From the NCBI RefSeq assembly GCF_003515945.1, contig NZ_QWLM01000002.1, positions 186,001 through 250,000 of the forward strand: 64,000 nt of DNA, read 5' to 3'. The notes under the pieces are model-generated. The model saw only the letters and a program-made list of their open reading frames with translations, did no database searches and was not told the origin of the DNA. Below, one piece after another: positions 1-20,748 of the stretch (within the stretch, counting starts at the first letter, position 1; each line of letters begins with the position of its first letter). This DNA comes from Dermacoccus abyssi (GTDB lineage Bacteria > Actinomycetota > Actinomycetes > Actinomycetales > Dermatophilaceae). A program made the position numbers and the translations under genes.

Positions 1-35
1 AACAGGTGAACGCTGCGGCGAAGGCCGCGGCTCAT
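1..35 (-). CDS. 5' end of a gene running off the left edge
   Basis: An ATG at 35..33 overlaps the TGA stop of the upstream methyltransferase gene in the four-base ATGA arrangement used repeatedly in this window. The eleven codons inside the window read M-S-R-G-L-R-R-S-V-H-L with no stop. This is too little to name a product. The call rests only on the overlap geometry, and the gene would be the next member of the same surface-polysaccharide operon. Confidence 0.35.
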   Translation of the reverse strand, partial: MSRGLRRSVHL

Positions 36-889
36 GAGGCAACCCTGGCCACGAGGTGGAGCGTGGGACGCAGGCGCGGCACAGCGGCGCGCGCTGCAAG
101 TGTCCCGGGCAGACCGAGTGCGGCCAGCGCCATCGTCGAGCGTTGCGCGAGCACGCCACGCGGGCGATCGGTCGGGCGCACGGCGCGAACCGTGCTCGCG
201 GCGCCGTGGACGAGCGAGTCGAGGACGGGGCGGCGGATCTCCACCGAGTCGAAGCCGGCGTCCCGCGCCATCGTGCTCAGAGACTTCGCCGTGAAGAAGC
301 GGATGTGTGTCGGATCCTCGAGCATCCACCAGCCGTCCTTGACGAGGCCGAGACCCGCCCAGTCACCGGCCGGCGTGAGGAAGTGCGCGCTGCCGCCGGG
401 GCGCAACAGGTCGCGGGTGCGCTGCAACGTCAGGGCTGGATCGACGACGTGCTCGAGCACGTGGATGCCGTAGGCCATGTCGACGGCGCCGGCGGGCAGG
501 GCGTCGGGCGTGACGTTCTCGATGCCGCAGGCGTGCAGCGATCCCTCGCGGGCCACACGGCCATCGACGGCGAGTTCGAGCTGGTCGGGATCGGCTCCCG
601 CGACGCTGGCTCCGCCGTCGAGGAAGCGACGCAGCAGAGCACCGGTGCCGAAGCCGATCTCGAACACCGACTCGGGTACGCCGTCCGCGATGAGCGTGCG
701 GTAGGTCAGGGCGAGACGCGCCGAGTCGAGCGTCGGGTCACCGCCGTAAGCGTGCTCACGGTGACGCGCGGGCGCGTCGTGGAGGGAGCGCACGAGGTGC
801 CCGCAGTGAGTGCACCGCCCGAGCACGGATGAGCCGAGCGTCCAAGGCTGCACGGCATGGCCGCACACCTCGCATCGAGACCTGGGAAT
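32..889 (-). CDS. Zinc-ribbon class I SAM-dependent methyltransferase, probable ATT start
   Basis: This is a class I SAM-dependent methyltransferase, probably acting on a sugar or lipid in the neighbouring polysaccharide pathway. A small N-terminal zinc ribbon (CEVC and CTHC, residues 6-9 and 26-29) precedes the SAM-binding motif EIGFGTG near residue 77; HVLEHVVDP follows further on as motif II. The frame stays open upstream to 1078, into the divergent glycosyltransferase gene. The best ribosome-binding site, AGGAGG, sits seven bases before an ATT codon at 889..887. That start keeps both zinc cysteine pairs and gives 285 residues. The next GTG upstream (958) has no Shine-Dalgarno sequence, and the next downstream would lose the first cysteine. 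Substrate unknown. Confidence 0.8.
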   Translation of the reverse strand: MPRSRCEVCGHAVQPWTLGSSVLGRCTHCGHLVRSLHDAPARHREHAYGGDPTLDSARLALTYRTLIADGVPESVFEIGFGTGALLRRFLDGGASVAGADPDQLELAVDGRVAREGSLHACGIENVTPDALPAGAVDMAYGIHVLEHVVDPALTLQRTRDLLRPGGSAHFLTPAGDWAGLGLVKDGWWMLEDPTHIRFFTAKSLSTMARDAGFDSVEIRRPVLDSLVHGAASTVRAVRPTDRPRGVLAQRSTMALAALGLPGTLAARAAVPRLRPTLHLVARVAS

Positions 890-917
890 CGGGACACCTC
901 CTGTTCGGCTCCCGGTT

Positions 918-923: not shown

Positions 924-974
924 ACGGGCGACCCGAAACGGTCGCGGACGAATGGCACGAGGAGACGAGCAGGG

Positions 975-2222
975 ATGAACGGCGAGCACGCAGGTGCCCC
1001 GATGCGGGTGCTGTACCTGTCGTGGCGCGACCGCGAGAACCCCGAAGCCGGCGGCTCCGAGGTGTTCGTCGAGCGCACGAGCGAGGTGATGAGCGCTCTC
1101 GGGGACGAGGTGACGATTCACACCGCCCGCTTCCCGGGCGCAGCCCGACGCACGATGCACGGCGACGTCCGCGTCCTGCGTGCCGGCAACCGCTTCACCT
1201 GCTACGCGGCGGGGCTGTGGCACCTGCTGCGCCACTCCCGCGATTACGACGTCGTCATCGACGTGCAGAACGGTGTGCCGTTCTGGTCACCCATCGTCTC
1301 CCGCGTCCCCGTCGTCGCCGTCGTCCACCACGTGCACCGCGACCAATGGTCGAGCATCTTCGGTGAGCGCCTCGCGAGGTTCGGCTGGTTCCTCGAGTCG
1401 AAGGCCGCGCCGTTCGTCTACCGCAAGAGCCGCTACGTCACCGTCTCGAAGGCAACGCGGGCCGAACTCGTGGAACTCGGCGTCGACGCCGAACGCATCG
1501 ACCTCGTCTACAGCGGCAACGACCACCCGCGCGATCTCGACTCCTACGCGGACGTGCCTCGCACGTCCGAGCCGTCCATCACCGTGCTGGGCCGCCTCGT
1601 GCCGCACAAACAGGTGGAGATCGCCGTGGACACCGTGGCACGCCTGCGCCCCCAGTTCCCCGGGCTCGTGCTCAACGTCGTCGGTTCCGGGTACTGGCAG
1701 GAGAACATCGCCCAGCACGCCCGCGATCTCGGAGTAGAGGACGCCGTCCGTTTCCACGGATTCGTCGACGAGGAGACCAAGCACACGCTGCTCGCCTCGT
1801 CGTGGCTCGTCATGATGCCCTCGTACAAGGAGGGCTGGGGCTTGACGATCGTGGAGGCCGGGCTGCACGGCACCCCCTCGCTGGCGTTCATCCAGGCCGG
1901 TGGCCCCAGTGAGTCCATCCAGCACGCGAGCACCGGCGCTCTGGCCTCGACGACCGACGAACTCATCGACGACGTGCGCGTCCTCCTCGAACGAGCGGAT
2001 GTCCGGGAGGAACTCGGACGCAATGCGCGCCGCTACGCCCGCTCGTTCAGCTGGAGCAGCGCCGGCCGGAACTTGCACCACACGCTCGAGAACGTCCTCG
2101 GGCGCGCGACGCGTGCGCCCCAGCCGCCGGACACTCCCCTGCACGTCGAGCGCCTGCGTGCCCTCGTCGAGCGCGACGCGTTCGCTTCGGACGAGCGGCC
2201 ACACGTCGTCAGCGTCTCCTGA
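975..2222 (+). CDS. GT4-family glycosyltransferase
   Basis: Glycosyltransferase of the GT4 (GT-B fold) type, 415 residues, expected to transfer a nucleotide-activated sugar to a glycan or lipid acceptor on the cytoplasmic face of the membrane. The N-terminal Rossmann domain carries GGSEVFVER shortly after the first strand. The C-terminal nucleotide-sugar domain has VLGRLVPHKQ and the EX7E signature EGWGLTIVE, with glutamates at about 286 and 294. The ATG at 975 lies behind GGAGACGAGCAGGG; an ATG at 1002 is a possible alternative. It is divergent from the methyltransferase gene, and a strong terminator follows. Acceptor and linkage cannot be read from the sequence. Confidence 0.9.
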   Translation: MNGEHAGAPMRVLYLSWRDRENPEAGGSEVFVERTSEVMSALGDEVTIHTARFPGAARRTMHGDVRVLRAGNRFTCYAAGLWHLLRHSRDYDVVIDVQNGVPFWSPIVSRVPVVAVVHHVHRDQWSSIFGERLARFGWFLESKAAPFVYRKSRYVTVSKATRAELVELGVDAERIDLVYSGNDHPRDLDSYADVPRTSEPSITVLGRLVPHKQVEIAVDTVARLRPQFPGLVLNVVGSGYWQENIAQHARDLGVEDAVRFHGFVDEETKHTLLASSWLVMMPSYKEGWGLTIVEAGLHGTPSLAFIQAGGPSESIQHASTGALASTTDELIDDVRVLLERADVREELGRNARRYARSFSWSSAGRNLHHTLENVLGRATRAPQPPDTPLHVERLRALVERDAFASDERPHVVSVS

Positions 2223-2284
2223 TCTCAGGCACACGGTGCCCCGGTCGTCGACGGCAGCCGGTGCGGGCCACACACACACAACAG

Positions 2285-2320
2285 CGCGAGGGCGAGGCAT
2301 TTCGATGCCTCGCCCTCGCG
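2285..2320. terminator. Bidirectional terminator hairpin with TTCG loop
   Basis: A perfect 16-bp GC-rich stem (2285-2300 with 2305-2320) is closed by a TTCG tetraloop. It lies between the convergent glycosyltransferase (+) and small membrane protein (-) genes. There is no clear T-tract. Confidence 0.85.
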
Positions 2321-2323
2321 CAT

Positions 2324-2343
2324 GTTCGGCCGTGCGGCCGAAC
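2324..2343. terminator. Second hairpin beside the TTCG terminator
   Basis: A perfect 8-bp inverted repeat, GTTCGGCC-GTGC-GGCCGAAC, lies three bases before the stop codon of the minus-strand small gene. It probably reinforces termination of that gene. Confidence 0.5.
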
Positions 2344-2346
2344 GGA

Positions 2347-2499
2347 TCAGCCGTCGTAGCTGATCTTGGACTGGTACTTCTGCGACTGCTCCTGGTTGCC
2401 CTGGGTCTGGATGAGACCGAAGATCGCCAGAAGGGCGAGAAGGATGCCGACGATGGCACCGCCGACGTTGTACGCCGCCTTGTTCGTGGACGCGCTCAT
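2347..2499 (-). CDS. Small single-pass membrane protein, 50 aa
   Basis: Unrecognised 50-residue protein. After a short polar N-terminus (MSASTNKAAYN) there is one hydrophobic segment at about residues 12-32 (VGGAIVGILLALLAIFGLI), then a glutamine- and lysine-rich tail. The ATG at 2499 has an AAAGGCGG ribosome-binding site; an upstream in-frame start at 2532 has none. Two hairpins follow its stop. It stands alone between the first glycosyltransferase and the polytopic membrane protein. The topology suggests a small membrane component, but no function can be assigned. Confidence 0.7.
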   Translation of the reverse strand: MSASTNKAAYNVGGAIVGILLALLAIFGLIQTQGNQEQSQKYQSKISYDG

Positions 2500-2609: not shown

Positions 2610-4406
2610 CTACTGTCTGGTACCCGAAGCGTGTCCTTGCGCGCCGCGTTCGAACTGCCTGCGCCGCACGAGCCACGCCGTACCCGCAGCCAGGGTGACC
2701 CCGGCGAGAGCCAGGCCCGTCGCGCCCCACCAGGGCGCGTTCCCTAGGCTCTGCGGGCCGTCGTGGCCGCTGGGACGGCCGATGTCGTAGAGCGTCAGGT
2801 CTCGTCCCGAGTGCACGACGGAGCCGATCGGGTTGAGCGTCCGAATGTCGTCGTCGGCCCCGGGTTGGGACTTCTCGACGACGACGTAGCGCACGCCGGC
2901 CCTACTCAGCGCAGCCTTGACCTGCGCCGCGTCCCCGCTCGCGAGGGCCCTCGACACCCGGTCGGCAGCCGCACTCTCACCCCGTACCGTGCTGTCACGC
3001 AGTGGCAGGTCGTCGTTGACGAGCACAGGAGAGGACGACAGGCGCTGCCACGCGTCGAGCACGGTGAGGTCGCCGTTCCAGCCGTACTGCCGGTACAGGC
3101 GCCACGGCAGGACGGCGGCCGCGTCCGACGACGCCGACAACCGCTGCGCGACGGCTCCGTACTCGTTCGGATAGCTCGACGAGACCCATTGGCCACCGCG
3201 GGCGAACGCAAGCCCCGGCAGAAGAACGACCGGCAGCACGGCGGCCGTGACGAGCGCGACAGGGGCGAGCGCGGTTCCTCGGGCGCGTGACACGACACGT
3301 GCCGCGAGCACGCCCCACCCGAGCGCTGCGGGCACGACGAGCAACGCGACGAACTTCTGTCCGTCGCGCAGCAGCCCGCCGCCGGGAACGGTCTCGACGA
3401 ACCACACAAGCAGTGGCGCCGTGACGGCGAAGCTTCCGAGGCTCGACAGGACGAGCGCGAGGATTCCGAGCGCCCCGATCCCCCAGCGCAGCGCCGGCAG
3501 ATGCCTCAGGAGCGTCACGAAGCCGACGACGACGAGGGCAGCGGCGAGAAAAGCGAAGACCACGGCGTGGCGCTCGGGGAACCACGACGGCTCGTGCCAG
3601 ATTCCGCCGCCCCCGAGGAGTGACCCGAGAACGCCCAGCGGCGTGTCGGCTCCGGCGGCAAAGGCCCGAACGCCGGTGGCGTCGGCCGCGGACGATGACG
3701 AGCTCGTGAGGAAGGGGAACCACCACGCGGCGTTGAGCAGGAGCCACGCGGCTGCTCCGACGGCGATGCTTCCCGCGCGGGGCCGACCCGCGCCGGGCGC
3801 AAGGAGGATGACGACCAACGCGATGGCGACGAGCACGGCGCCCGTCGAGCCCGACAGAGCGCTCATGCCCAGGCCCACCGCGGTGCTCGTCACGGCCCGG
3901 TGATGGCGCGTGTCATCGCCGTCGCTCCGCGCTGCGCGCAGTTCGAGTGCACCGACGACGGCCCACACGAGCGCTGCGTACCCCCAGAGGTAGCCCCAGT
4001 GACCGATGGCGAGACGCTCGGCCATCCACGGGCTCCACGTCGCGGCGACGGTTGCGACAACGGTGGTGACGACGCCGCGTCGCCAGCGGTCGAGACCGGC
4101 GCCGATGGCGAAGAACGCCCCGACGAGGACGAGCCGTTGCGTGATCCAGCCGGGCAGCACGAGGTCGAGCAGTGCGACGACGGTGTCGTTCGGCACGGCG
4201 CGGGGAACCCCGCCGTCCATCCCGAGCGTGCCCGCCGAAAGCGGGAGGTCGGGCACGAACACCATGTCGTAGTGGAGCAGGAAGCCGGGACGCCACAGCG
4301 CCGGGGACAGCACGACGAGCGCGACGGCAGTCGCCGTCAACAGGCCTGCATGCCGTGTGGGCCATGAGACAGCGCTCGACCGCTCCCCCTCGCCCCTGAC
4401 GCTCAC
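2610..4406 (-). CDS. Polytopic membrane protein, GT-C-like candidate
   Basis: A 598-residue protein with roughly eleven to thirteen membrane segments and a soluble region near the C-terminus (about 420-540), then a last membrane helix and a basic tail. The first extracytoplasmic loop contains HYDMVFVPD, an acidic loop of the sort seen in GT-C glycosyltransferases using polyprenyl-phosphate sugars. A YVVVEKS segment in the soluble part recalls YfhO-like proteins. The GTG at 4406 lies seven bases after the stop of the preceding glycosyltransferase gene, so the two are surely co-transcribed. A role in extracytoplasmic glycan assembly is inferred from neighbours and topology only. Confidence 0.75.
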   Translation of the reverse strand: MSVRGEGERSSAVSWPTRHAGLLTATAVALVVLSPALWRPGFLLHYDMVFVPDLPLSAGTLGMDGGVPRAVPNDTVVALLDLVLPGWITQRLVLVGAFFAIGAGLDRWRRGVVTTVVATVAATWSPWMAERLAIGHWGYLWGYAALVWAVVGALELRAARSDGDDTRHHRAVTSTAVGLGMSALSGSTGAVLVAIALVVILLAPGAGRPRAGSIAVGAAAWLLLNAAWWFPFLTSSSSSAADATGVRAFAAGADTPLGVLGSLLGGGGIWHEPSWFPERHAVVFAFLAAALVVVGFVTLLRHLPALRWGIGALGILALVLSSLGSFAVTAPLLVWFVETVPGGGLLRDGQKFVALLVVPAALGWGVLAARVVSRARGTALAPVALVTAAVLPVVLLPGLAFARGGQWVSSSYPNEYGAVAQRLSASSDAAAVLPWRLYRQYGWNGDLTVLDAWQRLSSSPVLVNDDLPLRDSTVRGESAAADRVSRALASGDAAQVKAALSRAGVRYVVVEKSQPGADDDIRTLNPIGSVVHSGRDLTLYDIGRPSGHDGPQSLGNAPWWGATGLALAGVTLAAGTAWLVRRRQFERGAQGHASGTRQ

Positions 4407-4413
4407 GCGGGCC

Positions 4414-5505
4414 TCACTCGAACTCGGCGAACGCCTCGCCGAGGCGACGGGTCTGCGTGACGATGTCGTGCTCCGCGACCATCCGTTCGCGGTTGGCTCG
4501 GCCCGTCTCGCGGGCAGCGTTGTCGTCCTCGAGGAAGTGCAGGAGCCCGTCGGCCAGTGCTGCGGCGTCGTCCTCGACGACGAGGTTCGGCGGCCGCACC
4601 GCCTCGTCGTTCGTACCACAGGCTGTCGTGACGACGGGAAGGCCGCACGCCTGCGCCTCGAGGTAGGCAAGACCGAGTTGCTCGGTCCACTTCCACGTCG
4701 GGCGGGGTGCCGTCGTGAACACCCGAGCCGAGCGCAGGAGATCGGCCACCCCCGACGCATCGAGCGAGCCCGCGAGGACGACCGAATCCGGCATGCGACG
4801 GGCGGCTTCCTCGACGAGCGGAAGCAACGGGCCGCGTCCGGCCACGACGAGCTGCGCCTCCGGCAGGTGTCGGCGCACGTGAGCCATCGCGTCGAGCACG
4901 GTGTCGATGCCCTTGTTCGGTGCCAGCGGCGAAGTGAAGACAACGCGCGGGCGGTCGGTGAGTTCGGCTGCCGGGGAGAACAGTTCCGTGTCGACACCGG
5001 GCTTGACGACGCGCGCCCGCTCGAGGTCGAAGCCGTTGAGGTCGAGGTGATCGAGGGCGGCGTCGACCATGCAGAGCACGAGGTCGGCGCTGCGTGCGGA
5101 TTCGACGGCCTGGCGGTACGGCGGCAGGGCGTACAGGGGCTGACGCGGCATGTTCTCCCACGTCACGACGGCCTGCTTGAAGCCTCCGGATCGGCGGCGC
5201 CGGGAAAGTTGCCCGGTGACGAGCGAACACAGCTCGAGGCTGACCGCCCAGTCGGGGCGAACGCGCGCGAGTTCGTCGTCGAGGTTCTCGGCCCAAGCGA
5301 AAGCGCCGGCCTCGATGAAGCGCTTCACCGGGCGGCGGTAGGTCGTCGGGACCCAGCTCATCTCCCCCACCGGCTCGTCGGCGGCCAGCGCTGTGACGTG
5401 GGTGTCGGGCATGCGCGACATCCAGTAGAGCTCACGGCGGGGACGCTGATCGGGCAGCGAGAGCCACAGGAGCTCACGCCGGCGCGACGCGTCACCGTGG
5501 GTCAC
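4414..5505 (-). CDS. GT4-family glycosyltransferase
   Basis: A 363-residue GT-B glycosyltransferase. The C-terminal domain has FTSPLAPNKGIDTVL near residue 190 and the EX7E motif EQLGLAYLE (E275, E283), followed by ACGLPVVTT. The N-terminal domain is less conserved. It overlaps the preceding GT2 gene by four bases (ATGA) and is followed after seven bases by the polytopic membrane protein gene, so GT2, GT4 and membrane protein form one translationally coupled unit behind the AftD-like gene. Donor and acceptor sugars are unknown. Confidence 0.88.
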   Translation of the reverse strand: MTHGDASRRRELLWLSLPDQRPRRELYWMSRMPDTHVTALAADEPVGEMSWVPTTYRRPVKRFIEAGAFAWAENLDDELARVRPDWAVSLELCSLVTGQLSRRRRSGGFKQAVVTWENMPRQPLYALPPYRQAVESARSADLVLCMVDAALDHLDLNGFDLERARVVKPGVDTELFSPAAELTDRPRVVFTSPLAPNKGIDTVLDAMAHVRRHLPEAQLVVAGRGPLLPLVEEAARRMPDSVVLAGSLDASGVADLLRSARVFTTAPRPTWKWTEQLGLAYLEAQACGLPVVTTACGTNDEAVRPPNLVVEDDAAALADGLLHFLEDDNAARETGRANRERMVAEHDIVTQTRRLGEAFAEFE

Positions 5506-6389
5506 GGCGTCTTTCCTCCGGAGGCCGCCTCACGGCGCGCGCTCCAGGCGCCGTAGCCGTAGCCGACCGCCTCCATGGCACGCATCGCGACCATGCCGGC
5601 GGCGTGCAGGGGGCGTCGGGCCAGGTCGCCGCGGTGGCTCCAGTACGCGCCGAGCACCGCACGCCCTTGGTCGCTGACGGCACCGTCGTGCTCGGCTTCG
5701 AGGGCCGGGATGCTTCGGCCGTAGTAGCGCCGCTTGTCGAAGACGTCGCGCAGGGTGAGGTGACCCTCGTCGTGGTCGATGACGATGGGAGCGAGTTCGA
5801 TGCGGTGTCCCGCACGGCGCATTTTCATGCGAAGGTCGGCGTCCTCCGGTCCGGACATCGCGAGGTGGAACTCGCCGTCGCCGACCATGAACTCACGGCG
5901 CAGCAGGCGTGGGTTGTGCAGCCACGGTTGGTCGAGGTAGCACTCACGCTCGAGGGCACGGCAGGCTGTCCAGAACCCCGTGCCGATCGTGCGCTCGGGC
6001 AGGGCGACGCCGGCCGCGCCTGTTTGCTCGGCCGTGTCGAGGGCGACTTCGAGAGCACGCGGCGGCAGGATCATGTCGCTGTCGAGCCACACGATCCACG
6101 GCGTCTCGGCAGCCTGAATGCCGCGGTTGCGCTGGGCGGAACGCTCGGGGCCCGCCTCGAGGTAGACGTCGGCGTACCGCTGGGCGATCTCGGGCGTCGC
6201 GTCGTTACTCGCGTTGTCGACGACGATGAGCGTCACGTTCGGCTCGGTCTGCACAACGACGGACGCGAGCGTCGCCTCGATCGTGCGCTCGTTGTTGCGC
6301 GTCGGCACGATGACGCTCACCGCGCGCGCAACACCGCCCTCCACATCGCGCCCGGCAGGCGTCCCGGCGCTCACGTGGCTGTCAATCAT
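5502..6389 (-). CDS. GT2-family glycosyltransferase
   Basis: A 295-residue GT-A fold glycosyltransferase. VSVIVPTRNNERTI opens the nucleotide-binding domain near residue 25, and DSD at 103-105 is the metal- and sugar-nucleotide-binding DXD motif. GPEDADLRMKMRRAG fits the ED acceptor/base region. There is no membrane segment, so it should act in the cytoplasm. The ATG at 6389 overlaps the end of the AftD-like gene by eight bases and has GGAGG nine bases upstream. The frame runs open further upstream but would then lie inside that gene. Confidence 0.88.
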   Translation of the reverse strand: MIDSHVSAGTPAGRDVEGGVARAVSVIVPTRNNERTIEATLASVVVQTEPNVTLIVVDNASNDATPEIAQRYADVYLEAGPERSAQRNRGIQAAETPWIVWLDSDMILPPRALEVALDTAEQTGAAGVALPERTIGTGFWTACRALERECYLDQPWLHNPRLLRREFMVGDGEFHLAMSGPEDADLRMKMRRAGHRIELAPIVIDHDEGHLTLRDVFDKRRYYGRSIPALEAEHDGAVSDQGRAVLGAYWSHRGDLARRPLHAAGMVAMRAMEAVGYGYGAWSARREAASGGKTP

Positions 6390-12991: not shown

Positions 12992-13084
12992 GGGTTCCTT
13001 ACGTGGGTGAGGCCCGAACGCACACGGCGGACCACGGACGGTGTCGGCGAACTCGGGCGGCACAAGAATGCCACCTCATGCGCC

Positions 13085-15073
13085 TCAGCGCTGGGCAGTC
13101 GCCAGAACCTGGGGCGCCAGCCACTTCCAGATCATCGGTGTGGCCTCCTCGGAGAAGTGGACGCTGTCGGTGTACAGCCGCTTACCGCTCACCTCGGGCT
13201 GGAAGGGATTGCTGCACACCGTCCTCGCGAGGTCGAGCAGCGGCACGTGCTCCTCGGACGCCCACTCCCGGATCAGGGCGTTGACCTGGTCGGGTCGCTG
13301 CGACTCGGCGAGCGCAGGGCCGTCGGCGCGCATCGCGGCGGCGTCCTCGGGCGGGAGGACGGACAGATCGGCCTGACGGCACGGCACCGTCGTCACGTAG
13401 ACACGCTGCGCTCCCCCGGCGCGGATCTTCCCGACGGTCTCGGTGAGACGCTTCTTCGCGAGGTCGCGGTAGGCGGCGTCGTCGATCCACACCTTTCGGC
13501 CGTCGAGCATGTGCCGCGAGGCGAGGTGCACGCCGGGCATGAGGACGGCGGCCTCCGCACCCGAGCCGCGAACCTTCGACGTCAGGTCGCGCTTGAGGGA
13601 GGCACAGTCCTTCGGGTTGGGCACGATCTTGCTCTTGGAATCGACGATCGGGATGTCGAGCATGTCGCAGCCCGGCACAGCCAGGGCCACGGGGTGGAGC
13701 CCCGGGAAGTTGAGCGACGGGTAGTTCTCGACGAGCTTGAGGGGCACCGAGTCGCCCACCATGGCCACCGTGGTCCGGCTCGAGGTCATGGGGTAGGCCT
13801 TCTGCCCCGGCACGAGGTCGGGAACGTTCGCCACGTACTGCGGCGGGCCGCTGACTCGGGTCATCGTCCACATGAGGCCTGAACCGAGGACGAGGGCCAG
13901 TGCCGAACCGACGGCGACGAACTGCCGCGTGCCGGAAGTGGATTTCGGCAGCAGACCCTTGACGCCGTTCTGCAGGACGGGCACTTCGATGTAGCGGAAG
14001 CTGAGGTACGCAGCGGCGAACGTGAGCGCACCCTTGAGCACGGCCTCGGCGATGTCGGGGAGGCCCGGCACGTCGACCCACAGGTTGATGGGCCAGTGGT
14101 AGAGGTAGAGCCCGTACGAGATGCGGCCCAGGAACGCCAGGGGCTCCCACCCGAAGATGCGGTTGATGAGCAGGTTGCGCGGGTCGACGCTCGACCACCC
14201 CATGAGGGCGGCGCCGACGGCGAAGAGCAGGATGCCACCGCGGTCGTAGACCCACGTGGTGCTCGGGTCGAGGAGGAAGACCGCCGAGACCGAGACGCCG
14301 AAGCCGATGACGCCGAGCGCCTGCGTCACGGCGCGTGGAGGGAGCACCGGGCCCCGTTTGTCGTTGCCGAGTCCAAGCAGACAGCCCAGCGCGACACCGA
14401 CGAGCAGAGCCTGCACGCGGGTGTCGGTGCCGTAGTAGAGGCGCGTCTGGTCCTGCGGCGTCTCGAAGCCGAGCTGCGCCGTCCAGCAGGCGCTCACCGC
14501 CGCAAGAGCGAGAGCGATGCCGGCCTTCGCGCCCCGGCGACGGGCGAGGGCGACGAGGGCGAGCACGAGGAAGGGGACGATGACGTAGAACTGTTCCTCG
14601 ACCGAGAGCGTCCACGCGTGACGCAGCGGCGACGGGTCGACGAACTGGTCGAAGTAGGCGTCGCCACGGCTGATGAGTCGCCAGTTGAGGAAGAATCCGA
14701 GCGTCGCGAAAGCGTCGCCGGCGTACTCCTTGCGCTGCTCCGCGTCGGCAAAGAAGGCCGTGTGAACGAGCACCGCGGCGACGAGCACGAACATCGCGGG
14801 GAGAACGCGGCGGGCCCGCCGGGCGTAGAAGCGGCGGACGTCGATGCGCCCCGTCTTCTGGCGCTCCTTGAGGAGCAGGCGAGTGATGAGGAAGCCGGAG
14901 AAGACGAAGAAGTGGTTGATGCCGACCCAGCCACCGACGAGCGCCGTCACGCCCAAGTGGTAGGCGATGACGAGAACGACGAACAGGCCGCGGTAACCGT
15001 CGAGCGCCGCATAGCGCGACGGCGTGCGCACGCCCTTGCCGTTGCGTCGCTGTGCGCGCGTGCTGCCCGTCAC
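13085..15073 (-). CDS. Acyltransferase-3 / SGNH fusion O-acyltransferase (OafA-type)
   Basis: A 662-residue membrane O-acyltransferase expected to move an acyl (often acetyl) group across the membrane onto an extracellular glycan. The N-terminal AT3 domain (about 1-390) begins with YAALDGYRGLFVVLVIAYHL, including the catalytic-region His, and has about eleven helices. The C-terminal SGNH domain has GDSVPLK (block I Ser) and DSVHFSEEATP (the Asp-His of block V). The GTG at 15073 overlaps the preceding gene's stop by four bases and has AGGTGG upstream. It is a tandem paralogue of that gene: both end in the same TPMIW-W-LAPQVL pattern. Confidence 0.9.
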   Translation of the reverse strand: MTGSTRAQRRNGKGVRTPSRYAALDGYRGLFVVLVIAYHLGVTALVGGWVGINHFFVFSGFLITRLLLKERQKTGRIDVRRFYARRARRVLPAMFVLVAAVLVHTAFFADAEQRKEYAGDAFATLGFFLNWRLISRGDAYFDQFVDPSPLRHAWTLSVEEQFYVIVPFLVLALVALARRRGAKAGIALALAAVSACWTAQLGFETPQDQTRLYYGTDTRVQALLVGVALGCLLGLGNDKRGPVLPPRAVTQALGVIGFGVSVSAVFLLDPSTTWVYDRGGILLFAVGAALMGWSSVDPRNLLINRIFGWEPLAFLGRISYGLYLYHWPINLWVDVPGLPDIAEAVLKGALTFAAAYLSFRYIEVPVLQNGVKGLLPKSTSGTRQFVAVGSALALVLGSGLMWTMTRVSGPPQYVANVPDLVPGQKAYPMTSSRTTVAMVGDSVPLKLVENYPSLNFPGLHPVALAVPGCDMLDIPIVDSKSKIVPNPKDCASLKRDLTSKVRGSGAEAAVLMPGVHLASRHMLDGRKVWIDDAAYRDLAKKRLTETVGKIRAGGAQRVYVTTVPCRQADLSVLPPEDAAAMRADGPALAESQRPDQVNALIREWASEEHVPLLDLARTVCSNPFQPEVSGKRLYTDSVHFSEEATPMIWKWLAPQVLATAQR

Positions 15074-17073
15074 GGACGTCCACCTGCCTTGCTCAGAACC
15101 TGCGGGGCGAGCCAGCCCCATATCATCGGGGTTGCCTCGGGCGAGAAGTGAATGCCGTCCTCGTAGACCTTCTTGCCGTGCAGCGTCGGCTGGTAACCGT
15201 CACCGCACACGGCGGAGGCGAGGTCGACGACAGGCACGTTCTCCTCCTTCGCCCAGGTACTGATGAGGGCGTTGAGGCGCTTGGGGTTCTGGGCCTCGGC
15301 CACGAGTTCGGGGGAGCGGCTCAGCTCCGTACGGTACTGGGGCGGAAGGTTGAGTTCGCTCATCCGTCGGCACGGAACGGTGGTGATCTGCACCGAACGA
15401 GCCCCGGCCGCCTCGGCTTTCGTCGTGAGTTCGGAGAGCTTCGAGCGCACGGCAGCAACGTACGCCGGGTCGTCGAGCCACACCGTGCGCCCTCTGAGTT
15501 GGTGGCGCAGCGCGAGCTGGAGACTGGGCATGATGACGAACGTCTCGGCGCCCGAGGTACGCACCTTCTCCTCGTAGGTCGCCTTGTTCTGCCGGCACGC
15601 GGCGTCGGCGCCGAGCGCCACCGTCGGTGTCCACTGCACAGGGGCGTCGACGATGTCGCAACCGGGTGTGCCGAGGTTGACGACCTCAAGGCCCGGGAAG
15701 TTGCCGCTGGGGAAACGGGAGACGAGGTGGAACGGCACCGAGTCACCGAACAGCGCGACCTTCGTCGGCGGCTTCGGCGCCGTGAACGTCGGCTGCCCCT
15801 CGACGAGCTGGGGGATGTTCGCCACCTTCTGCGGGACGCTCTCGTCGCGCACGGGTGCGGTGGCCTGCGCCGTACCTCCCGAGACGAAGAGCGCGCCGAC
15901 GACGACCGCGGCCAGCCCTGCGAAGCCTGCGGCCCCCGTCCGACGGCGACCGAACGCGCCGAGTCCGTGCTTCATGATCGGCTGTTCGAGGAAGCGGTAG
16001 CTCACGGCGGCCGCCGCGTAGGACAGGGCGAGCGTCAGCACCGCGAGAACCCAGACGTTGACGCCGGTGAGGTAGCGCGAGAGCCAGATGAAGATCGGCC
16101 AGTGGTACAGGTAGAGGCCGTACGAGATCTTGCCCGTGTAGACCGCGGGTGGCAGGGAGAACACGCGAACGAGGGGTGTGGCGCGCCTCTGCGCACAGCC
16201 GATGATCCACGCCGTCGCCGCGATGGAGGTCAGCAGCATCCCGCCGCGCGAGAACATCCACGGTGCGAGCGGCTCGATCGTGACGAACGCGACGAGCGTG
16301 GCCGCCAGCCCGAGCCACCCGACGATCTCGATCCACGGGCGGCCGCCGTCGAGGGGATCACGCGGGTCGCGAGGTTTGAGCAGCGCCCCGCCGCTCCCCC
16401 GGTGCCCACTCCACACGCCCGCCGCGACGCCGAGCGCCAAGGCCTGAACGCGGATGTCCGTGCCGTAGTAGGCGTGTGACTGACCACCCAGCCCGACGAG
16501 GTCCAACCGCGTGGCCCACAGGGCACTGAGTCCGGCGAGCAGCACGAACGGAAGGGTCCTCGCCAGGCGCGTACGCCCCAGGGCCAGTACGGCCACGACG
16601 AGCCACGGCACGACGAGATAGAACTGCTCCTCGACTGACAGACTCCACGCGTGCCGCGTGATGCTCGGGTGGCTGAAAGCCTCGAAGTACTGATCGTCAC
16701 GGGCCACAAGACGCCAGTTCATGACGTAGGTGAGGGTGGCGAGGATGTCGCCCTTGAGGTACGCCTTCTCCTCATCGGGGGCCAAGAACAGCCCATCGAG
16801 CGTCACCGCGCCGAGCATGACGAGCAGTGCCGGGCCGAGGCGCCGCACCCGTCGGACGTAGAAATCGTGAACGCTGATGTCGCCGTAGCTACGCCGCTCG
16901 GCGAGGAGCAGACGCGTGATGAGGAAGGCGGAGAGTATGAAGAAGACGTTCATGAACACCCACAGCCCCGGCAGAACCGTGAGTGCCCCCACGTGCCACA
17001 GCATGAAGACGACCATGCCGTAGCCGCGGATGCCGTCCAGGCCAGGACGGTGGGCGAAGAGCCGTGCGGCCAT
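15070..17073 (-). CDS. Acyltransferase-3 / SGNH fusion O-acyltransferase (OafA-type)
   Basis: A 667-residue paralogue of the next gene in the operon. The AT3 domain opens with GLDGIRGYGMVVFMLWHVG and carries RHAWSLSVEEQFYLVVPWL, the family's most conserved membrane-face segment. The C-terminal SGNH domain has GDSVPFH and DGIHFSPEATP. GGAGAGG precedes the ATG at 17073. It likely acylates a surface polysaccharide outside the cell. The four-base overlap with the following acyltransferase implies equimolar synthesis. The pair may add acyl groups at two positions or use two acyl donors; the sequence does not say which. Confidence 0.9.
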   Translation of the reverse strand: MAARLFAHRPGLDGIRGYGMVVFMLWHVGALTVLPGLWVFMNVFFILSAFLITRLLLAERRSYGDISVHDFYVRRVRRLGPALLVMLGAVTLDGLFLAPDEEKAYLKGDILATLTYVMNWRLVARDDQYFEAFSHPSITRHAWSLSVEEQFYLVVPWLVVAVLALGRTRLARTLPFVLLAGLSALWATRLDLVGLGGQSHAYYGTDIRVQALALGVAAGVWSGHRGSGGALLKPRDPRDPLDGGRPWIEIVGWLGLAATLVAFVTIEPLAPWMFSRGGMLLTSIAATAWIIGCAQRRATPLVRVFSLPPAVYTGKISYGLYLYHWPIFIWLSRYLTGVNVWVLAVLTLALSYAAAAVSYRFLEQPIMKHGLGAFGRRRTGAAGFAGLAAVVVGALFVSGGTAQATAPVRDESVPQKVANIPQLVEGQPTFTAPKPPTKVALFGDSVPFHLVSRFPSGNFPGLEVVNLGTPGCDIVDAPVQWTPTVALGADAACRQNKATYEEKVRTSGAETFVIMPSLQLALRHQLRGRTVWLDDPAYVAAVRSKLSELTTKAEAAGARSVQITTVPCRRMSELNLPPQYRTELSRSPELVAEAQNPKRLNALISTWAKEENVPVVDLASAVCGDGYQPTLHGKKVYEDGIHFSPEATPMIWGWLAPQVLSKAGGRP

Positions 17074-17172: not shown

Positions 17173-17763
17173 TCAGTCGCGAACCGTGTCGGGCTCGTCG
17201 TCGTCGAAGCGCGTGCGACGGCGGGCCGGACGCACATCGTCGTCGTCCTCGTCGTCGACCAGGCGCGTGCGGCGGACCTTGCGAGGGGCGTCGTCCTCGT
17301 CACCCAAACGGGAACGACGGCGCGGCTCCGTGGTGCGCTCGCTCTGGCGCTCCGTGCGACCGGCGAGGAGGCCCGGGCGGCGATCGGAGTCGGCGTCGTC
17401 GACGTCGTCGTCCTCCACGGCCTCGTCCTCGAGGCGGGTGCGGGCGCCGCGCGTCTGCGCTGCCGACTCCGAGCCGAAGAGGAGGAAGCCGAGGGCGGCG
17501 GTGATGATGGCGAGGGCGAGGAAGAGGAGGCTCTGGTTGCGTGCGACGTCCTCGATGATGCCGCACTGGCCCTTGGCCAGACCGTTCGTGTTAGGTGACA
17601 TCGGGCTACCGCAACGGAAGAGGCCGCCGTCCTTGCCCATGAAGCTGGTCGGCGTGAGGAAGAAGTACGCGGCCACCGCGAGGAATCCGGTGGCGACGAT
17701 GAGCGCGACCTTCGTTCCGGGGCGCAGCGACGTCACTGTACGAGTGTCTGACTGGTTCGACAT
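17173..17763 (-). CDS. Two-helix membrane protein with acidic/arginine repeat tail
   Basis: Unrecognised 196-residue protein. It has two hydrophobic segments (about 18-36 and 78-95) separated by an outer loop with two cysteines, FRCGSPMSP and GQCGII, which could form a disulfide. The last 95 residues are a low-complexity charged tail with three degenerate copies of R-R-x-R-[LF]-x-[DE]-[DE]. The topology places the tail in the cytoplasm. The gene looks leaderless: TAGCAT lies six bases before the ATG, with no ribosome-binding site. It lies between acyltransferase genes, but a link to glycan assembly is only positional. Confidence 0.8.
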   Translation of the reverse strand: MSNQSDTRTVTSLRPGTKVALIVATGFLAVAAYFFLTPTSFMGKDGGLFRCGSPMSPNTNGLAKGQCGIIEDVARNQSLLFLALAIITAALGFLLFGSESAAQTRGARTRLEDEAVEDDDVDDADSDRRPGLLAGRTERQSERTTEPRRRSRLGDEDDAPRKVRRTRLVDDEDDDDVRPARRRTRFDDDEPDTVRD

Positions 17764-17769
17764 GCCCGC

Positions 17770-17775: not shown

Positions 17776-17857
17776 GCGAAGTGGAACCGCCTGCGGCCCG
17801 GCCATTGGGCAAATAGACTCGCGCCCGTTGTCCTGTTCCCGTCGAGAGGCCCACCCC

Positions 17858-19777
17858 GTGCCACGTCGCGCACCCACTTCGTCGGGTTACCGCCCGGCGC
17901 TCGACGGACTTCGTGGCGTCGCCGTCCTCGCCGTTCTCGTTTTTCACCTCTGGCCGGCGGGGGTTCAGGGCGGCTGGCTCGGTGTCGACCTCTTCTTCGT
18001 CCTGTCGGGTTACCTCATCACGAGTCTGCTCGTGCGCGAGTACGCCCGTTCGGGCCGCATCGACCTGCGCCGCTTCTGGACTGCCCGCGCCCGACGCCTG
18101 CTGCCCAGCCTCATCACCGTGCTCATCGCGGTGCTGGCGGCGGCAGCTTTCTGGACACCCCCGGGACGACGCAGCTCGGTGGCGCTCGACACTCTCGCGA
18201 CGCTCTTCTACGTCCAGAACTGGCGCCTCCTCGCGAGCAACGAGGCCTACTTCGACGCCAACGGCGTTCCCTCTCCGCTGCGCCACGCCTGGTCGCTGGC
18301 CATCGAGGAGCAGTACTACCTCCTCTTCCCGCTGCTGTTCCTCTTCCTCGCGCGGTATGTCCACCGCCGCTGGACGCTCGCGCTCGTCTTCGCCGTCGCT
18401 GCCGCCGCCAGTGCTGCCTGGATGGCCTACCTCTACGTGCCGGACGTCGACCCGACGCGCGTCTACTACGGCACCGACACCCGCGCCTTCGAACTGCTCA
18501 TCGGCGCTGCGATCGGCGCGTGGGTCGGTCCGAGCCAATGGGGGCACGAACGCCCGTCGCGCTGGGTCGAGATCATCTCGAAGCTCGCCTGGCCGAGCCT
18601 CGCGGCGCTGCTCGTTGCGTTCGTCGCCCTCTCCGAGGACTCGCCGCTCGTCTTCCGCGGCGGCCTCGTCGTCGTCTGTCTTCTGACGCTGCCCGCGATC
18701 CTCGCCGCGGCGTCACCGCACGCGAACGCCTTTCAGCGGGCGTTCTCGTTCGAGCCACTGCGGCAGGTCGGCCTCATCAGTTACGCGTTGTACCTGTGGC
18801 ACTGGCCCGTACACGTCTTCCTCTCGCCTGAGCGTCTGCGCATGGGCACCGCTGCCGCCGCGCTCGTGCAGGCCGTGCTGTCGATCGTCTTCGCGACGCT
18901 GACCTACCGCTACCTCGAGGCGCCGATCCGGGCGGGTGGACTGCGCGGTCTGGTGCCCCGCTCGCCCAGGATCTCCCGCCTGGTCGCGGTGACGGCCTGT
19001 GCTGCCGTCGCCGTGGGTACGGTTGCGCTCCCGAGGGTCACCAGCGGTAACCCGACCGAGGAGACCGGTGCGGGAGGCGGCGAACTCACGTACGCGGTGC
19101 CGTCGTACCAGCCGGGCGCCTCGCAGCGCGTCGTCGTCGTGGGTAACTCCATTCCGCACAGCCTCATGGTGAGCTTCCCGTCCACACGGTTCACCGACCT
19201 CGACGTCTCGGAGTCGACGAGCTTCGGCTGCACCACCTTCCCCGGTCAGCAGATCCTCAACGGCAAACCTGCCCCCATCCCCGCGGCCTGCCGCACGTTC
19301 TGGAAGAACTGGCACCTCGGGCTCTTCGAGGCAGACACGATGCTGTACTTCCTGCCGCAGAACCTGCTCGACGACTACGAGGTCGACGGCCGACGGCTGA
19401 AGGCGGGCAGCGCCGAGCACGACGCCTTCATCCGTTCCTCGCTCGACTCGATGCTCGCCAAGTCCAAGGAATCCCGGGTGAAGCGCCCGGTGCTGCTCGA
19501 CCTCGCCTGCCACGAGATGCCGACGTTCGGCCAGAATCCGCCGTCCCTCAACGACACCGCGAAGGTGCGTCACCTCAACGGGGTCGCCAAGCATTGGGCT
19601 GCGCAGAACAAGGTGCAGTTCCTGTCGCAGTTCGACCGGCTGTGCCCCGGCGGCACGTACCACGGCAAACTCAACGGCCAGGAGCTCTACGAGGACGCCC
19701 TGCACTACACATCCGTCTCCGGACCCATCATGTGGTCGTGGATCGCACCGCAGATCCGCAAGGACACCGCGAAGTGA
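17858..19777 (+). CDS. Acyltransferase-3 / SGNH fusion O-acyltransferase, variant SGNH block I
   Basis: A third AT3-SGNH protein, 639 residues, on the opposite strand to the tandem pair. The AT3 part begins with ALDGLRGVAVLAVLVFHLW and has RHAWSLAIEEQYYLLFPLL. In the SGNH part, block I reads VVVGNSIPHSL, with Asn where the family usually has Asp before the nucleophilic Ser. The Ser and the terminal DALHY Asp-His are kept. The GTG at 17858 follows GAGAGG at eight bases; a TTG at 17828 is less likely. It overlaps the nucleotidyltransferase gene by four bases, so acylation and sugar activation are coupled in expression. Confidence 0.88.
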   Translation: MPRRAPTSSGYRPALDGLRGVAVLAVLVFHLWPAGVQGGWLGVDLFFVLSGYLITSLLVREYARSGRIDLRRFWTARARRLLPSLITVLIAVLAAAAFWTPPGRRSSVALDTLATLFYVQNWRLLASNEAYFDANGVPSPLRHAWSLAIEEQYYLLFPLLFLFLARYVHRRWTLALVFAVAAAASAAWMAYLYVPDVDPTRVYYGTDTRAFELLIGAAIGAWVGPSQWGHERPSRWVEIISKLAWPSLAALLVAFVALSEDSPLVFRGGLVVVCLLTLPAILAAASPHANAFQRAFSFEPLRQVGLISYALYLWHWPVHVFLSPERLRMGTAAAALVQAVLSIVFATLTYRYLEAPIRAGGLRGLVPRSPRISRLVAVTACAAVAVGTVALPRVTSGNPTEETGAGGGELTYAVPSYQPGASQRVVVVGNSIPHSLMVSFPSTRFTDLDVSESTSFGCTTFPGQQILNGKPAPIPAACRTFWKNWHLGLFEADTMLYFLPQNLLDDYEVDGRRLKAGSAEHDAFIRSSLDSMLAKSKESRVKRPVLLDLACHEMPTFGQNPPSLNDTAKVRHLNGVAKHWAAQNKVQFLSQFDRLCPGGTYHGKLNGQELYEDALHYTSVSGPIMWSWIAPQIRKDTAK

Positions 19778-20748
19778 GCCTTCACGCCGTCATCCTCGCG
19801 GGCGGCTACGGCTCACGGATGATGCCGCTGACGACACGCACGCCGAAGCATCTTCTCCCGATCGGTGACGAGCCCGTCATCGCTCACCAGCTTCGTCGCC
19901 TCGCCGCCGCGGGAGTGGACTCCGTGACGTTGGCGACCGCCCACCACGCCGAGGCCTTCCTGCCGGCGCTCGGCCACGGTGAGCGCTTCGGGCTCCACCT
20001 GCGCTACACCCGTGAGCCCGAACCGCGGGGCACCGGTGGCGCGCTGAAACACGCGTGCGCCGGGCTCACGCTTCACCCGGACGACGCGCTCGTCGTCATC
20101 AACGGCGACCTCGTGAGCGACCACGACCTCGCCGCGCACGTGCGCGCGCATGTCCACGCCGGCGCACCCGTGGCGACGATCCACGCGCGACCGGTCGATG
20201 ACGCGAGTGCCTTCGGCCTGCTCCATCTCGACGGTGACCGCATCACCCGGTTCGAAGAGAAGCCCGCCGGCGCACCTGCCGGTTTCGTCAACGCCGGCAC
20301 GTACGTCGTCAGCCCGTCATTGCTCGATCTCATCCCGGCCGGCGAGGTGGTCTCGCTCGAGCGGGACGTGTTCCCCCGAGCCGTGGCGCTCGACGAGGGT
20401 GTGCGGGTCTACCGCGAAGACGCGCGCTTCGCCGACATCGGAACACCCGCCGCGCTGCTCGCGGCGAACCTGGCGTGGGCCCGGGATCACGTCCCGAGCG
20501 ACCGCCCGAACGCCACGAGTGTTCTGCTCGGCGCCCAGGTCGCCCCCACGGCTCGCGTCGAGCGCTGCCTCGCCATGCCGGGTGCCCAGATCGGCGCCGA
20601 TGCGGTGCTCACCGACAGCGTGCTCGGGCCGGGCTGCGTCATCGGTGACGGCGCGCACCTCAAGGGTTGTGTTCTGGGCGACGGGGCTCGGGTGAGCCCC
20701 GGGCTGCGACTCGCCGACGCCGTACTGGAGGTCGACGAGCGCCGCTGA
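19774..20748 (+). CDS. Sugar-1-phosphate nucleotidyltransferase (mannose-1-phosphate guanylyltransferase-like)
   Basis: A 324-residue nucleotidyltransferase that joins a sugar-1-phosphate to a nucleoside triphosphate, giving an activated sugar for the local glycosyltransferases. The N-terminal motif AVILAGGYGSRMMPLT-(x4)-PKHLLP is the GGxxxRxxP...PK signature. INGDLVSD supplies a metal-binding Asp and GTGGAL the sugar pocket. Four or five hexapeptide repeats at the C-terminus (about 245-315) form a short left-handed beta-helix. The GTG start at 19774 overlaps the acyltransferase stop. Similarity in length and motifs favours mannose-1-P guanylyltransferase, but glucose-1-P enzymes share this layout. 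Confidence 0.85.
   Translation: MSLHAVILAGGYGSRMMPLTTRTPKHLLPIGDEPVIAHQLRRLAAAGVDSVTLATAHHAEAFLPALGHGERFGLHLRYTREPEPRGTGGALKHACAGLTLHPDDALVVINGDLVSDHDLAAHVRAHVHAGAPVATIHARPVDDASAFGLLHLDGDRITRFEEKPAGAPAGFVNAGTYVVSPSLLDLIPAGEVVSLERDVFPRAVALDEGVRVYREDARFADIGTPAALLAANLAWARDHVPSDRPNATSVLLGAQVAPTARVERCLAMPGAQIGADAVLTDSVLGPGCVIGDGAHLKGCVLGDGARVSPGLRLADAVLEVDERR

What the first reader, a model, noticed from the sequence alone, without database searches (positions are those of the whole stretch)
1..20748. Surface-glycan locus combining an AftD-like transferase with three O-acyltransferases
An AftD-type arabinofuranosyltransferase is associated with mycolic-acid bacteria, yet here it sits with a flippase, two GT4, one GT2, a second polytopic protein, two methyltransferases, three AT3-SGNH acyltransferases and a nucleotidyltransferase. 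No Wzy-type polymerase is evident. This set could build a decorated arabinan-like or other heteroglycan by an unusual route. That combination, in an organism whose other genes look like Micrococcales, is the best candidate here for an undescribed pathway.
Basis: partly seen in the sequence, partly recalled or inferred. Interest (0 to 1): 0.6.

Follow-up and report, generated by a model that had tools for sequence, protein, structure and literature searches.

The report
Mycobacterial envelope gene set without mycolates
A gene cluster in a Micrococcales-like bacterium carries relatives of the mycobacterial envelope genes AftD, MmpA, PgfA, TmaT and MtrP although the bacterium lacks key genes for mycolic acids and arabinan, which suggests that these proteins began as parts of a different sugar-coat pathway.

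Summary
That left part holds a second, stronger AftD homologue, an AT3 acyltransferase, PgfA, a heptose-phosphate-type trio and a UXS1-like gene. The 'second polytopic protein' is MmpA (334 bits, cut-off 210). Six genes (AftD1, MmpA, PgfA, AT3/TmaT, MT1/MtrP, GT4) match the tmaT locus of Corynebacteriales, whose MmpA was printed as absent elsewhere. All 21 recur, partly rearranged, in Aeromicrobium; 20 are collinear in Metallococcus. MmpA occurs in 105 of 186 genomes of this family. Profile and fold comparisons make MmpA a GT-C protein related to AftD, with a conserved Asp after TM1 and an Arg aligned to AftD's. Best reading: a widespread actinobacterial glycan-assembly locus with three extracytoplasmic GT-C proteins using a donor other than decaprenyl-phosphoarabinose; product probably O-methylated, O-acylated, perhaps with heptose or xylose. 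Sugar, acceptor and catalysis are inferred, not shown.

The parts
1..38 (-). MT1, MtrP-like methyltransferase; only the start of the gene is in the window, the rest lies left of it (C2:185322-186038)
   Evidence: PF08241 5.5e-18; best own-locus match at the MtrP position in two mycobacteria-like loci, 43% and 45%
32..898 (-). MT2, methyltransferase (start not fixed; the ORF runs to 1078)
   Evidence: PF13489 9.8e-20
972..2222 (+). GT4a, glycosyltransferase matching the GT4 between MmpA and MtrP in mycobacteria-like loci (start not fixed; ORF opens at 810)
   Evidence: PF00534 3.6e-29; 42-43% over 375-381 aa to the two mycobacteria-like loci
2610..4412 (-). MmpA, polytopic protein predicted here to be a GT-C glycosyltransferase (start not fixed)
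   Evidence: NF053599 334 bits, cut-off 210; profile match to AftD, probability 99.9; GT-C fold matches
4414..5505 (-). GT4b glycosyltransferase
   Evidence: PF13692 7.6e-25
5502..6380 (-). GT2 glycosyltransferase (start not fixed)
   Evidence: PF00535 2.3e-26; 63-71% identity in Aeromicrobium, Flexivirga and Metallococcus
6382..10668 (-). AftD2, AftD-family GT-C protein with F5/8C domain
   Evidence: PF11847 3.4e-56, PF00754 1.9e-9; AftD structure 6w98 E 1.5e-22
10795..12090 (+). Wzx-type flippase
   Evidence: PF01943 7.3e-10
12146..13063 (-). MT24, methyltransferase
   Evidence: PF13578 1.3e-8
13085..15121 (-). AT3-SGNH O-acyltransferase 1
   Evidence: PF01757 1.2e-26, PF19040 5.9e-8
15070..17073 (-). 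AT3-SGNH O-acyltransferase 2
   Evidence: PF01757 1e-18, PF19040 2.2e-12
17173..17763 (-). small membrane-type protein with a charged tail, conserved in the locus, function unknown
   Evidence: no Pfam hit; homologue in the Aeromicrobium, Metallococcus and Flexivirga loci
17828..19777 (+). AT3-SGNH-type O-acyltransferase 3
   Evidence: PF01757 3.8e-27; full-length match to acyltransferase 2
19774..20748 (+). sugar-1-phosphate nucleotidyltransferase with left-handed beta-helix, mannose/heptose-1-P guanylyltransferase-like
   Evidence: PF00483 3.2e-41; 7d72 GMPP-beta E 3.1e-38; NCBIfam scores below curated cut-offs
20779..23478 (-). polA, right border of the locus, not part of it
   Evidence: PF00476 1.6e-147; also borders the locus in Metallococcus, G085 and G214, Flexivirga and Aeromicrobium

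Best explanation
The finding is the right half of a conserved actinobacterial glycan-assembly locus lying between rpsA and polA. Its core (AftD1, MmpA, PgfA, an AT3/TmaT-like protein, an MtrP-like methyltransferase, a GT4) is homologous to the tmaT locus of Corynebacteriales, but here it works without mycolates and without decaprenyl-phosphoarabinose (DPA). Proposed mechanism: GT4a, GT4b and GT2 build an oligosaccharide on a polyprenyl or lipid carrier in the cytoplasm, perhaps from GDP-heptose and UDP-xylose made by locus enzymes. The methyltransferases modify it and the Wzx-type protein flips it. Outside, three GT-C proteins (AftD1, AftD2, MmpA) add sugars from a polyprenyl-phosphate donor other than DPA. 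The AT3 enzymes O-acylate the product, and PgfA, placed in lipid traffic in mycobacteria, carries the lipid-linked intermediate. Shown: gene content, order, homology, conservation, GT-C relation of MmpA, absence of DPA-pathway and Pks13 matches in the own genome. Inferred: direction of flow, donors, product, and catalysis by MmpA.
For: 21 of 21 own genes recur in Aeromicrobium flavum (partly rearranged) and 20 of 21, collinear, in Metallococcus carri; rpsA and polA border the locus in own, Metallococcus, G085 and G214, in Aeromicrobium. MmpA and PgfA exceed their NCBIfam cut-offs. AftD1 matches AftD structures at E 1.7e-76, AftD2 at 1.5e-22; D70, E292, R410 and K414 are present in both. MmpA against AftD profile: probability 99.9, E 8.4e-31, 481 columns. 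MmpA D49 in 21 of 22 rows (the other a gap) and R349 in 22 of 22. Foldseek ranks 1-7 and VIA-align ranks 1-40 for the MmpA model are GT-C enzymes or parts or relatives of them. Own genome: no DPPR synthase or DprE1, Pks13 best match 95.5 bits of 2100, no Emb. In 382 genomes outside the mycobacteria-like family f7, 21 have MmpA; of these 15 have AftD, 17 PgfA, 4 DprE1. MmpA in 105 of 186 genomes of the own family.
Against: No substrate is known for any member here. The MmpA model has low confidence (pLDDT 57.7, pTM 0.54; residues 35-75 with D49 under 50), the fold matches have rmsd of about 5-14 A and Z 6.7-11.4, and the tool warns that helical models can reach Z 13 by a common arrangement alone; Foldseek has one match under E 0.001. 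hhalign puts MmpA D49 opposite AftD D74, not the conserved D70. K353 is K in 16, R in 5 of 22 MmpA rows. A profile search of the PDB with MmpA did not find AftD. AftD as a whole still goes with DprE1 outside f7 (27 of 40). Published work on C. glutamicum reads MmpA as needed for acetylation and transport of trehalose corynomycolate (PMC8698533, passages), which fits a non-enzymatic role too. The heptose-type genes score below equivalog cut-offs (HddA 275 of 600, GmhA 172 of 276) and no match to them appeared in the rpsA-polA intervals of G085 and G214. No polyprenyl-phosphate-sugar synthase was identified in the locus (GT2) and no initiating transferase; three PF02397 genes lie elsewhere. Six of 35 MmpA genomes lack an AftD match. 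DprE1 was not tested in the Aeromicrobium, Flexivirga and Metallococcus genomes.
Confidence: 0.6

Rival explanations
1. Acylated-glycolipid export machine: MmpA, PgfA, the TmaT-like AT3 and the MtrP-like MT acylate and hand over a glycolipid, MmpA being a non-catalytic GT-C-derived scaffold or carrier, as proposed for trehalose corynomycolates. Here the cargo is another glycolipid.
For: C. glutamicum mutants of tmaT, mtrP and mmpA share the loss of acetylated TMCM (PMC8698533 passages); PgfA is placed in TMM transport in mycobacteria (PMC9678360 passages); four AT3 acyltransferases in the locus.
Against: D49 and R349 of MmpA are conserved in every row that has the position, down to other classes, unexpected for a mere scaffold; three GTs, a flippase and nucleotide-sugar genes sit in the same conserved block.
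Confidence: 0.2
2. Lipoglycan maturation: the locus elongates or caps a lipomannan-type lipoglycan with heptose or xylose caps and O-acyl groups, PgfA/LmcA acting at the mannan elongation step.
For: The PgfA homologue LmcA of C. glutamicum is needed for full-length LM/LAM (PMC8972800 and PMC8698533 passages).
Against: A Wzx-type flippase and several cytoplasmic-type GTs point to a separately assembled lipid-linked oligosaccharide; lipomannan genes were not examined.
Confidence: 0.12
3. Decorated arabinan made with AftD and decaprenyl-phosphoarabinose.
For: AftD homology with conserved residues; in the phylum AftD does go with DprE1 outside f7 in 27 of 40 genomes.
Against: No DPPR synthase, DprE1 or Emb match in the own genome, rated 100% complete. 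Of the 15 genomes outside f7 with MmpA and AftD, 11 lack a DprE1 match; 7 of these 11 are rated over 90% complete, 4 (G013, G170, G181, G297) are 74-86% complete (one search set, completeness).
Confidence: 0.04
4. An ordinary variable exopolysaccharide island, with mycobacterial-looking names that mean nothing.
For: Such loci often carry AT3, GT4, GT2, Wzx and methyltransferases (general knowledge).
Against: Gene order conserved with Metallococcus at 33-84% protein identity and position between rpsA and polA in own, Metallococcus, G085 and G214; curated family cut-offs exceeded by MmpA and PgfA.
Confidence: 0.04

Closest known systems
tmaT-mmpA-mtrP-aftD locus of Corynebacteriales (cg3161 aftD, cg3163 tmaT, cg3164, cg3165, cg3166 putative GT, cg3168 mtrP; PMC7775120, PMC8698533, PMC11175481, passages read)
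   Same: Six homologous genes clustered; in G085 and G214 they are the matched genes between rpsA and polA (G214 also a flippase).
   Different: No Pks13, Emb or DPA-pathway match in the own genome; extra block AftD2-GT2-GT4b-Wzx-MT24-AT3 x3-NTase plus heptose-type genes; position between rpsA and polA, whereas in the mycobacteria-like G150 rpsA and polA are neighbours and the module lies elsewhere.
AftD, mycobacterial arabinofuranosyltransferase (PDB 6w98, 6wbx)
   Same: PF11847 GT-C domain and conserved D, E, R, K positions; AftD1 lies in an 11-row clade with AftD of the mycobacteria-like genomes, 100/100 support.
   Different: No DPA pathway found; AftD2 falls in a different 12-row clade (100/99), all rows from MmpA-bearing genomes.
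Three-component extracytoplasmic glycosylation systems (PMC11127046, passages read)
   Same: GT-C enzyme, in AftD2 with an extra F5/8C carbohydrate-binding-type domain, and a presumed lipid-linked donor.
   Different: That paper ties Araf systems to DprE1/E2 and pentofuranoses to a polyprenyl-phosphate charging enzyme; no DprE1 or DPPR-type UbiA here.
[quoted passage not shown]
   Same: Adjacent SIS isomerase, GHMP kinase (3k85 E 8e-77) and HAD phosphatase, plus a nucleotidyltransferase.
   Different: All score below the curated equivalog cut-offs; the nucleotidyltransferase is closer to mannose-1-P guanylyltransferase than to HddC.

Membership tests
AftD family (PF11847) | GT-C_AftD N-terminal domain over the curated cut-off | tested here: met
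   AftD2 190.9 bits and AftD1 492 bits, cut-off 26
AftD family (PF11847) | conserved D70, E292, R410, K414 (AftD1 numbering) | tested here: met
   present in both own proteins; of 32 rows D70 in 30, E292 in 32, R410 in 32, K414 in 24 with R in the other 8. That these residues act in catalysis is recall/inference, not from a call
AftD as arabinofuranosyltransferase | decaprenyl-phosphoarabinose donor pathway in the genome | tested here: not met
   no DPPR synthase or DprE1 found in a genome rated 100% complete
AftD as arabinofuranosyltransferase | ACP partner and carbohydrate-binding modules | tested here: inconclusive
   F5/8C domain found by Pfam in AftD2, not in AftD1; ACP binding not tested
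MmpA (NCBIfam NF053599) | score over curated cut-off | tested here: met
   334 bits, cut-off 210
MmpA as trehalose-mycolate delivery protein | mycolic acid condensing enzyme in the genome | tested here: not met
   best Pks13-model match 95.5 bits, cut-off 2100; over the cut-off in 2 of 11 genomes, G150 and G385, and in control C. glutamicum
GT-C glycosyltransferase (for MmpA) | GT-C membrane fold | tested here: met
   hhalign to AftD; Foldseek ranks 1-7 GT-C; VIA-align ranks 1-40 GT-C enzymes, their parts or relatives, Z 11.4 to 6.7. Caveat: low-confidence model and middling Z for a helical protein
GT-C glycosyltransferase (for MmpA) | acidic residue in the first extracytoplasmic loop, equivalent to that of AftD | tested here: inconclusive
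   D49 in 21 of 22 rows, one gap, but aligned to AftD D74, not D70
PgfA/LmcA (NF053601, PF11271) | score over curated cut-off | tested here: met
   256.7 bits, cut-off 160
tmaT locus of Corynebacteriales | AftD, TmaT, PgfA, MmpA, GT, MtrP clustered | tested here: met
   best own-locus match of each at its place in the G150 and G385 loci; clustering in own, G085, G214
Wzx/Wzy polysaccharide pathway | Wzy polymerase in the locus | tested here: inconclusive
   flippase present, no Wzy-type Pfam family among the genes scanned; a Wzy can lack a Pfam match
GDP-heptose pathway | GmhA, HddA, GmhB, HddC equivalogs over cut-off | tested here: inconclusive
   right families, below equivalog cut-offs; best PDB hits of the kinase are heptose kinases
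UDP-xylose synthase | closest solved relative is UXS1 | tested here: met
   4gll/2b69 E 1.6e-111/2.6e-111, next a UDP-glucose 4-epimerase 3.2e-39; activity not testable

The most novel reading that the evidence does not exclude
MmpA, reported essential in M. tuberculosis and named for trehalose-lipid delivery, is a GT-C glycosyltransferase. The AftD-MmpA-PgfA-TmaT-MtrP set is then an ancient actinobacterial pathway for an acylated, methylated lipid-linked glycan that mycobacteria kept and added to the mycomembrane. The sugar moved by the MmpA-linked AftD proteins would not be arabinofuranose, since those genomes outside the mycobacteria-like family mostly lack DprE1.
Probability: 0.42. Interest if true: 0.8.

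Novelty: new variant of a known kind. Interest (0 to 1): 0.6.

Why it matters
In the papers seen, TmaT, MtrP, MmpA, PgfA and AftD are studied as mycomembrane, lipoglycan or arabinan genes, and MmpA was reported to have no homologue outside corynebacteria and mycobacteria (PMC8698533, passage). Finding the set in bacteria without Pks13, Emb or DprE1 matches means that their shared function must be something else, and gives organisms in which that function is not masked by mycolates. It offers a concrete, testable activity for MmpA. It also warns that the NCBIfam name 'trehalose lipid delivery protein' is reached by genomes (101 of 186 over the cut-off in this family) that most likely make no mycolates; Pks13 itself was tested in only three genomes of that group (own, G085, G139) and in Flexivirga, Metallococcus and Aeromicrobium.

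Tried and rejected
Arabinan by the DPA route: rejected. The ORF 10750-12168 (-) has no Pfam hit; the overlapping + strand ORF is the flippase. ORFs 1287-2459 (-), 56-832 (+), 17030-17776 (+) and 17770-18831 (+) have no family and overlap better-supported genes. GT2 as a polyprenyl-phosphate-sugar synthase: not supported. PDB hmmsearch with the MmpA profile gave five chance-level matches, E 0.23-0.5, although hhalign and the fold comparison connect it to AftD. The MmpA structure prediction from 4 sequences was poor. A first AftD tree used wrong translations for several rows and is replaced, where L061 (genome G128) was left out as the same gene as L095. In one search the weak AftD hit of G056, which lies on its MmpA ORF, was dropped before counting (54 of 55 AftD genomes kept). 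In one search two MmpA rows (one of the two L087 frames, and L089) were left out; one search repeats the count with all 22 rows, two of which are two frames of one broken gene (L087). A1 holds 19 sequences, without L087 and L089. Fisher tests ignore phylogeny and are only descriptive. Family f7 is called mycobacteria-like from two of its 14 members (G150, G385: Pks13 and three Emb each). Heptose genes elsewhere in the compact genomes were not sought; DprE2 and lipomannan genes were not sought in any. In the Flexivirga genome the locus is split over two contigs: no AftD1, GT4a, MT1 or PgfA was found beside its MmpA (L006), while AT3, NTase and the small protein lie next to polA on C24. Literature: 0 papers for DUF3367, 0 for MmpA with GT-C and mycobacter, 0 in the first AftD search; the library lacks most subscription papers, including the AftD structure paper.
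Full report
What is there. The window is C2:186001-250000 of a 3.16 Mb genome in 55 contigs, rated 100% complete. The locus continues to the left: the same search found a second and much stronger AftD match 2.6 to 0.8 kb left of the window start (493.9 bits against 192.8 for the one in the window). Reading the flank and scanning it gave, from the window outwards, a methyltransferase (MT1), AftD1, an AT3 acyltransferase, a GHMP kinase of the HddA type, a SIS isomerase of the GmhA type, a HAD phosphatase of the GmhB type, PgfA (256.7 bits, cut-off 160) and an SDR closest to UXS1 (2b69, E 2.6e-111). rpsA lies beyond; polA is the right border. I count 21 locus genes in the 31.8 kb between rpsA and polA; one further methyltransferase-type gene next to rpsA (L004:7331-8167) is not counted.

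What it is. In C. glutamicum the order is aftD (cg3161), tmaT (cg3163), cg3164, cg3165, a putative GT (cg3166), mtrP (cg3168) (PMC7775120, passage). cg3165 is MmpA (PMC11175481, passage); that cg3164 is NCgl2760, the LmcA/PgfA homologue, I infer from its place between tmaT and mmpA (PMC8698533, PMC9678360, PMC8972800; passages). At the corresponding places of two mycobacteria-like genomes the best matches among my 21 own-locus proteins are AftD1 (with a C-terminal stretch nearer AftD2), the AT3 next to it, PgfA, MmpA, GT4a and MT1. PMC8698533 states that MmpA has no homologue outside corynebacteria and mycobacteria, and that it resembles the N-terminal part of AftD (data not shown there), which it takes for the membrane anchor.

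Conservation. All 21 genes have matches in Aeromicrobium flavum, partly rearranged, and 20 of 21 (not MT24) in the same order and strands in Metallococcus carri. In Flexivirga caeni six genes (MT24 to MmpA) stand at the start of one contig, and AT3, nucleotidyltransferase and small-protein matches stand beside polA on another; the AftD1, GT4a, MT1 and PgfA part was not found there. In G085 (own family) and G214 (same class) a compact set, PgfA-AT3-AftD1-MT1-GT4a-MmpA, lies between rpsA and polA; in G150 rpsA and polA are adjacent and the module is elsewhere; in G139 the module is on another contig than polA. In two genomes of another class (L084, L085) GT2, AftD2, Wzx, PgfA, MmpA and GT4a occur together. 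The own polA is nearest to Metallococcus (72%), then G085, Flexivirga and G139 (70%) among 13 other genomes compared; the family name Dermacoccaceae for these is recall.

No arabinan, no mycolate genes. Own UbiA proteins are heme o synthase and MenA. Own ALO proteins score 68 and 37 bits on the DprE1 model, cut-off 500. DprE1 gives no match at E 1e-40 in G000, G085, G139 or G214; it was not tested in the three named genomes. Emb matched 2 of 14 genomes, both mycobacteria-like. Pks13 was over its cut-off in 2 of 11 genomes, the same two, and in the C. glutamicum control.

Spread. In one draw of 396 genomes of the phylum: MmpA 35 (26 over the cut-off), AftD 55, DprE1 62, PgfA 62 (34 over the cut-off). 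Leaving out the 14 genomes of the mycobacteria-like family f7, 21 of 382 have MmpA; of these 15 have AftD, 17 PgfA and 4 DprE1. AftD genomes outside f7 without DprE1 have MmpA in 11 of 13; those with DprE1 in 4 of 27. So there seem to be two AftD settings, one with DprE1 and one with MmpA. AftD itself still goes with DprE1 overall (27 of 40 outside f7), which speaks against a non-arabinan story for the whole family. Four of the 11 genomes are under 90% complete. In the own family MmpA is in 105 of 186 genomes and 34 of 53 genera.

AftD tree. With 32 rows AftD1 groups with the Aeromicrobium and Metallococcus copies (100/100) inside an 11-row clade that also holds the AftD of f7 and f6 genomes (100/100). 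AftD2 groups with three named relatives (100/100) inside a 12-row clade (100/99), all from MmpA-bearing genomes. An 8-row clade, six of whose genomes have DprE1 and no MmpA, has R in place of K414. Both own proteins keep D70, E292, R410 and K414.

MmpA as a GT-C protein. Profile comparison of 19 MmpA with 19 AftD sequences gives probability 99.9, E 8.4e-31 over 481 columns, with R349 opposite R410 and K353 opposite K414; D49 falls opposite D74, not the conserved D70. In all 22 MmpA rows D49 is present in 21 (one gap), R349 in 22, and position 353 is K in 16 and R in 5; the mycobacteria-like rows keep all three. A model from 4 sequences is poor (pLDDT 57.7). Yet Foldseek's seven best PDB matches are GT-C enzymes (one under E 0.001), and the first 40 VIA-align rows are GT-C enzymes, their parts or relatives (PIG-U as a relative is recall), Z 11.4 to 6.7, among them AftD (9.4), AftA, AftB, Emb, ArnT, PimE and PglB; the first unrelated row is rank 41, Z 6.6 over 85 residues. 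The tool warns that such Z values alone do not settle a helical fold; together with the profile match I take the GT-C relation as shown. That it means catalysis is inference.

Mechanism proposed. Cytoplasmic assembly by GT4a, GT4b and GT2, O-methylation, flipping by the Wzx-type protein, then extracytoplasmic sugar addition by three GT-C proteins from a lipid-phosphate donor that is not DPA, O-acylation by AT3 enzymes, and hand-over by PgfA. The heptose-type trio and the UXS1-like gene suggest heptose and xylose as building blocks in the extended locus; no match to them appeared in the compact loci, so they are probably not part of the core function. The absence of a Wzy candidate fits a short lipid-linked oligosaccharide as well as a polymer made elsewhere.

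Verdict. Observation confirmed and extended; arabinan reading not supported; the locus is a non-mycolate variant of a known corynebacterial gene set. I score interest 0.6 because it moves a medically important gene set out of its assumed context and makes the activity of MmpA testable.

Noticed in passing
L004:5441-6997 and window 20779-23478: The rpsA-polA interval carries the glycan locus in own, Metallococcus, G085 and G214, while rpsA and polA are adjacent in G150; in G139 they lie about 5 kb apart and the module is on another contig.
   Followed up: partly
window 17173-17763 (-): Small membrane-type protein with a charged tail, conserved in the locus in Aeromicrobium, Metallococcus and Flexivirga, without any Pfam family.
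   Followed up: no
AftD tree: K414 of AftD is R in 8 of 32 rows, all in one clade of which six genomes have DprE1 and no MmpA; it may mark a donor difference.
   Followed up: no
L090, L091, L092, L093, L094: Distant actinobacterial genomes hold MmpA-like proteins without an AftD match beside them; 6 of 35 MmpA genomes have no AftD once the G056 hit is dropped.
   Followed up: no
window 23959-24570 (-): Response regulator with an ANTAR RNA-binding domain near polA.
   Followed up: no
window 17828-19777 (+): Third AT3 protein has GNS where its neighbour has GDS in the first SGNH block and misses the Pfam SGNH model.
   Followed up: no
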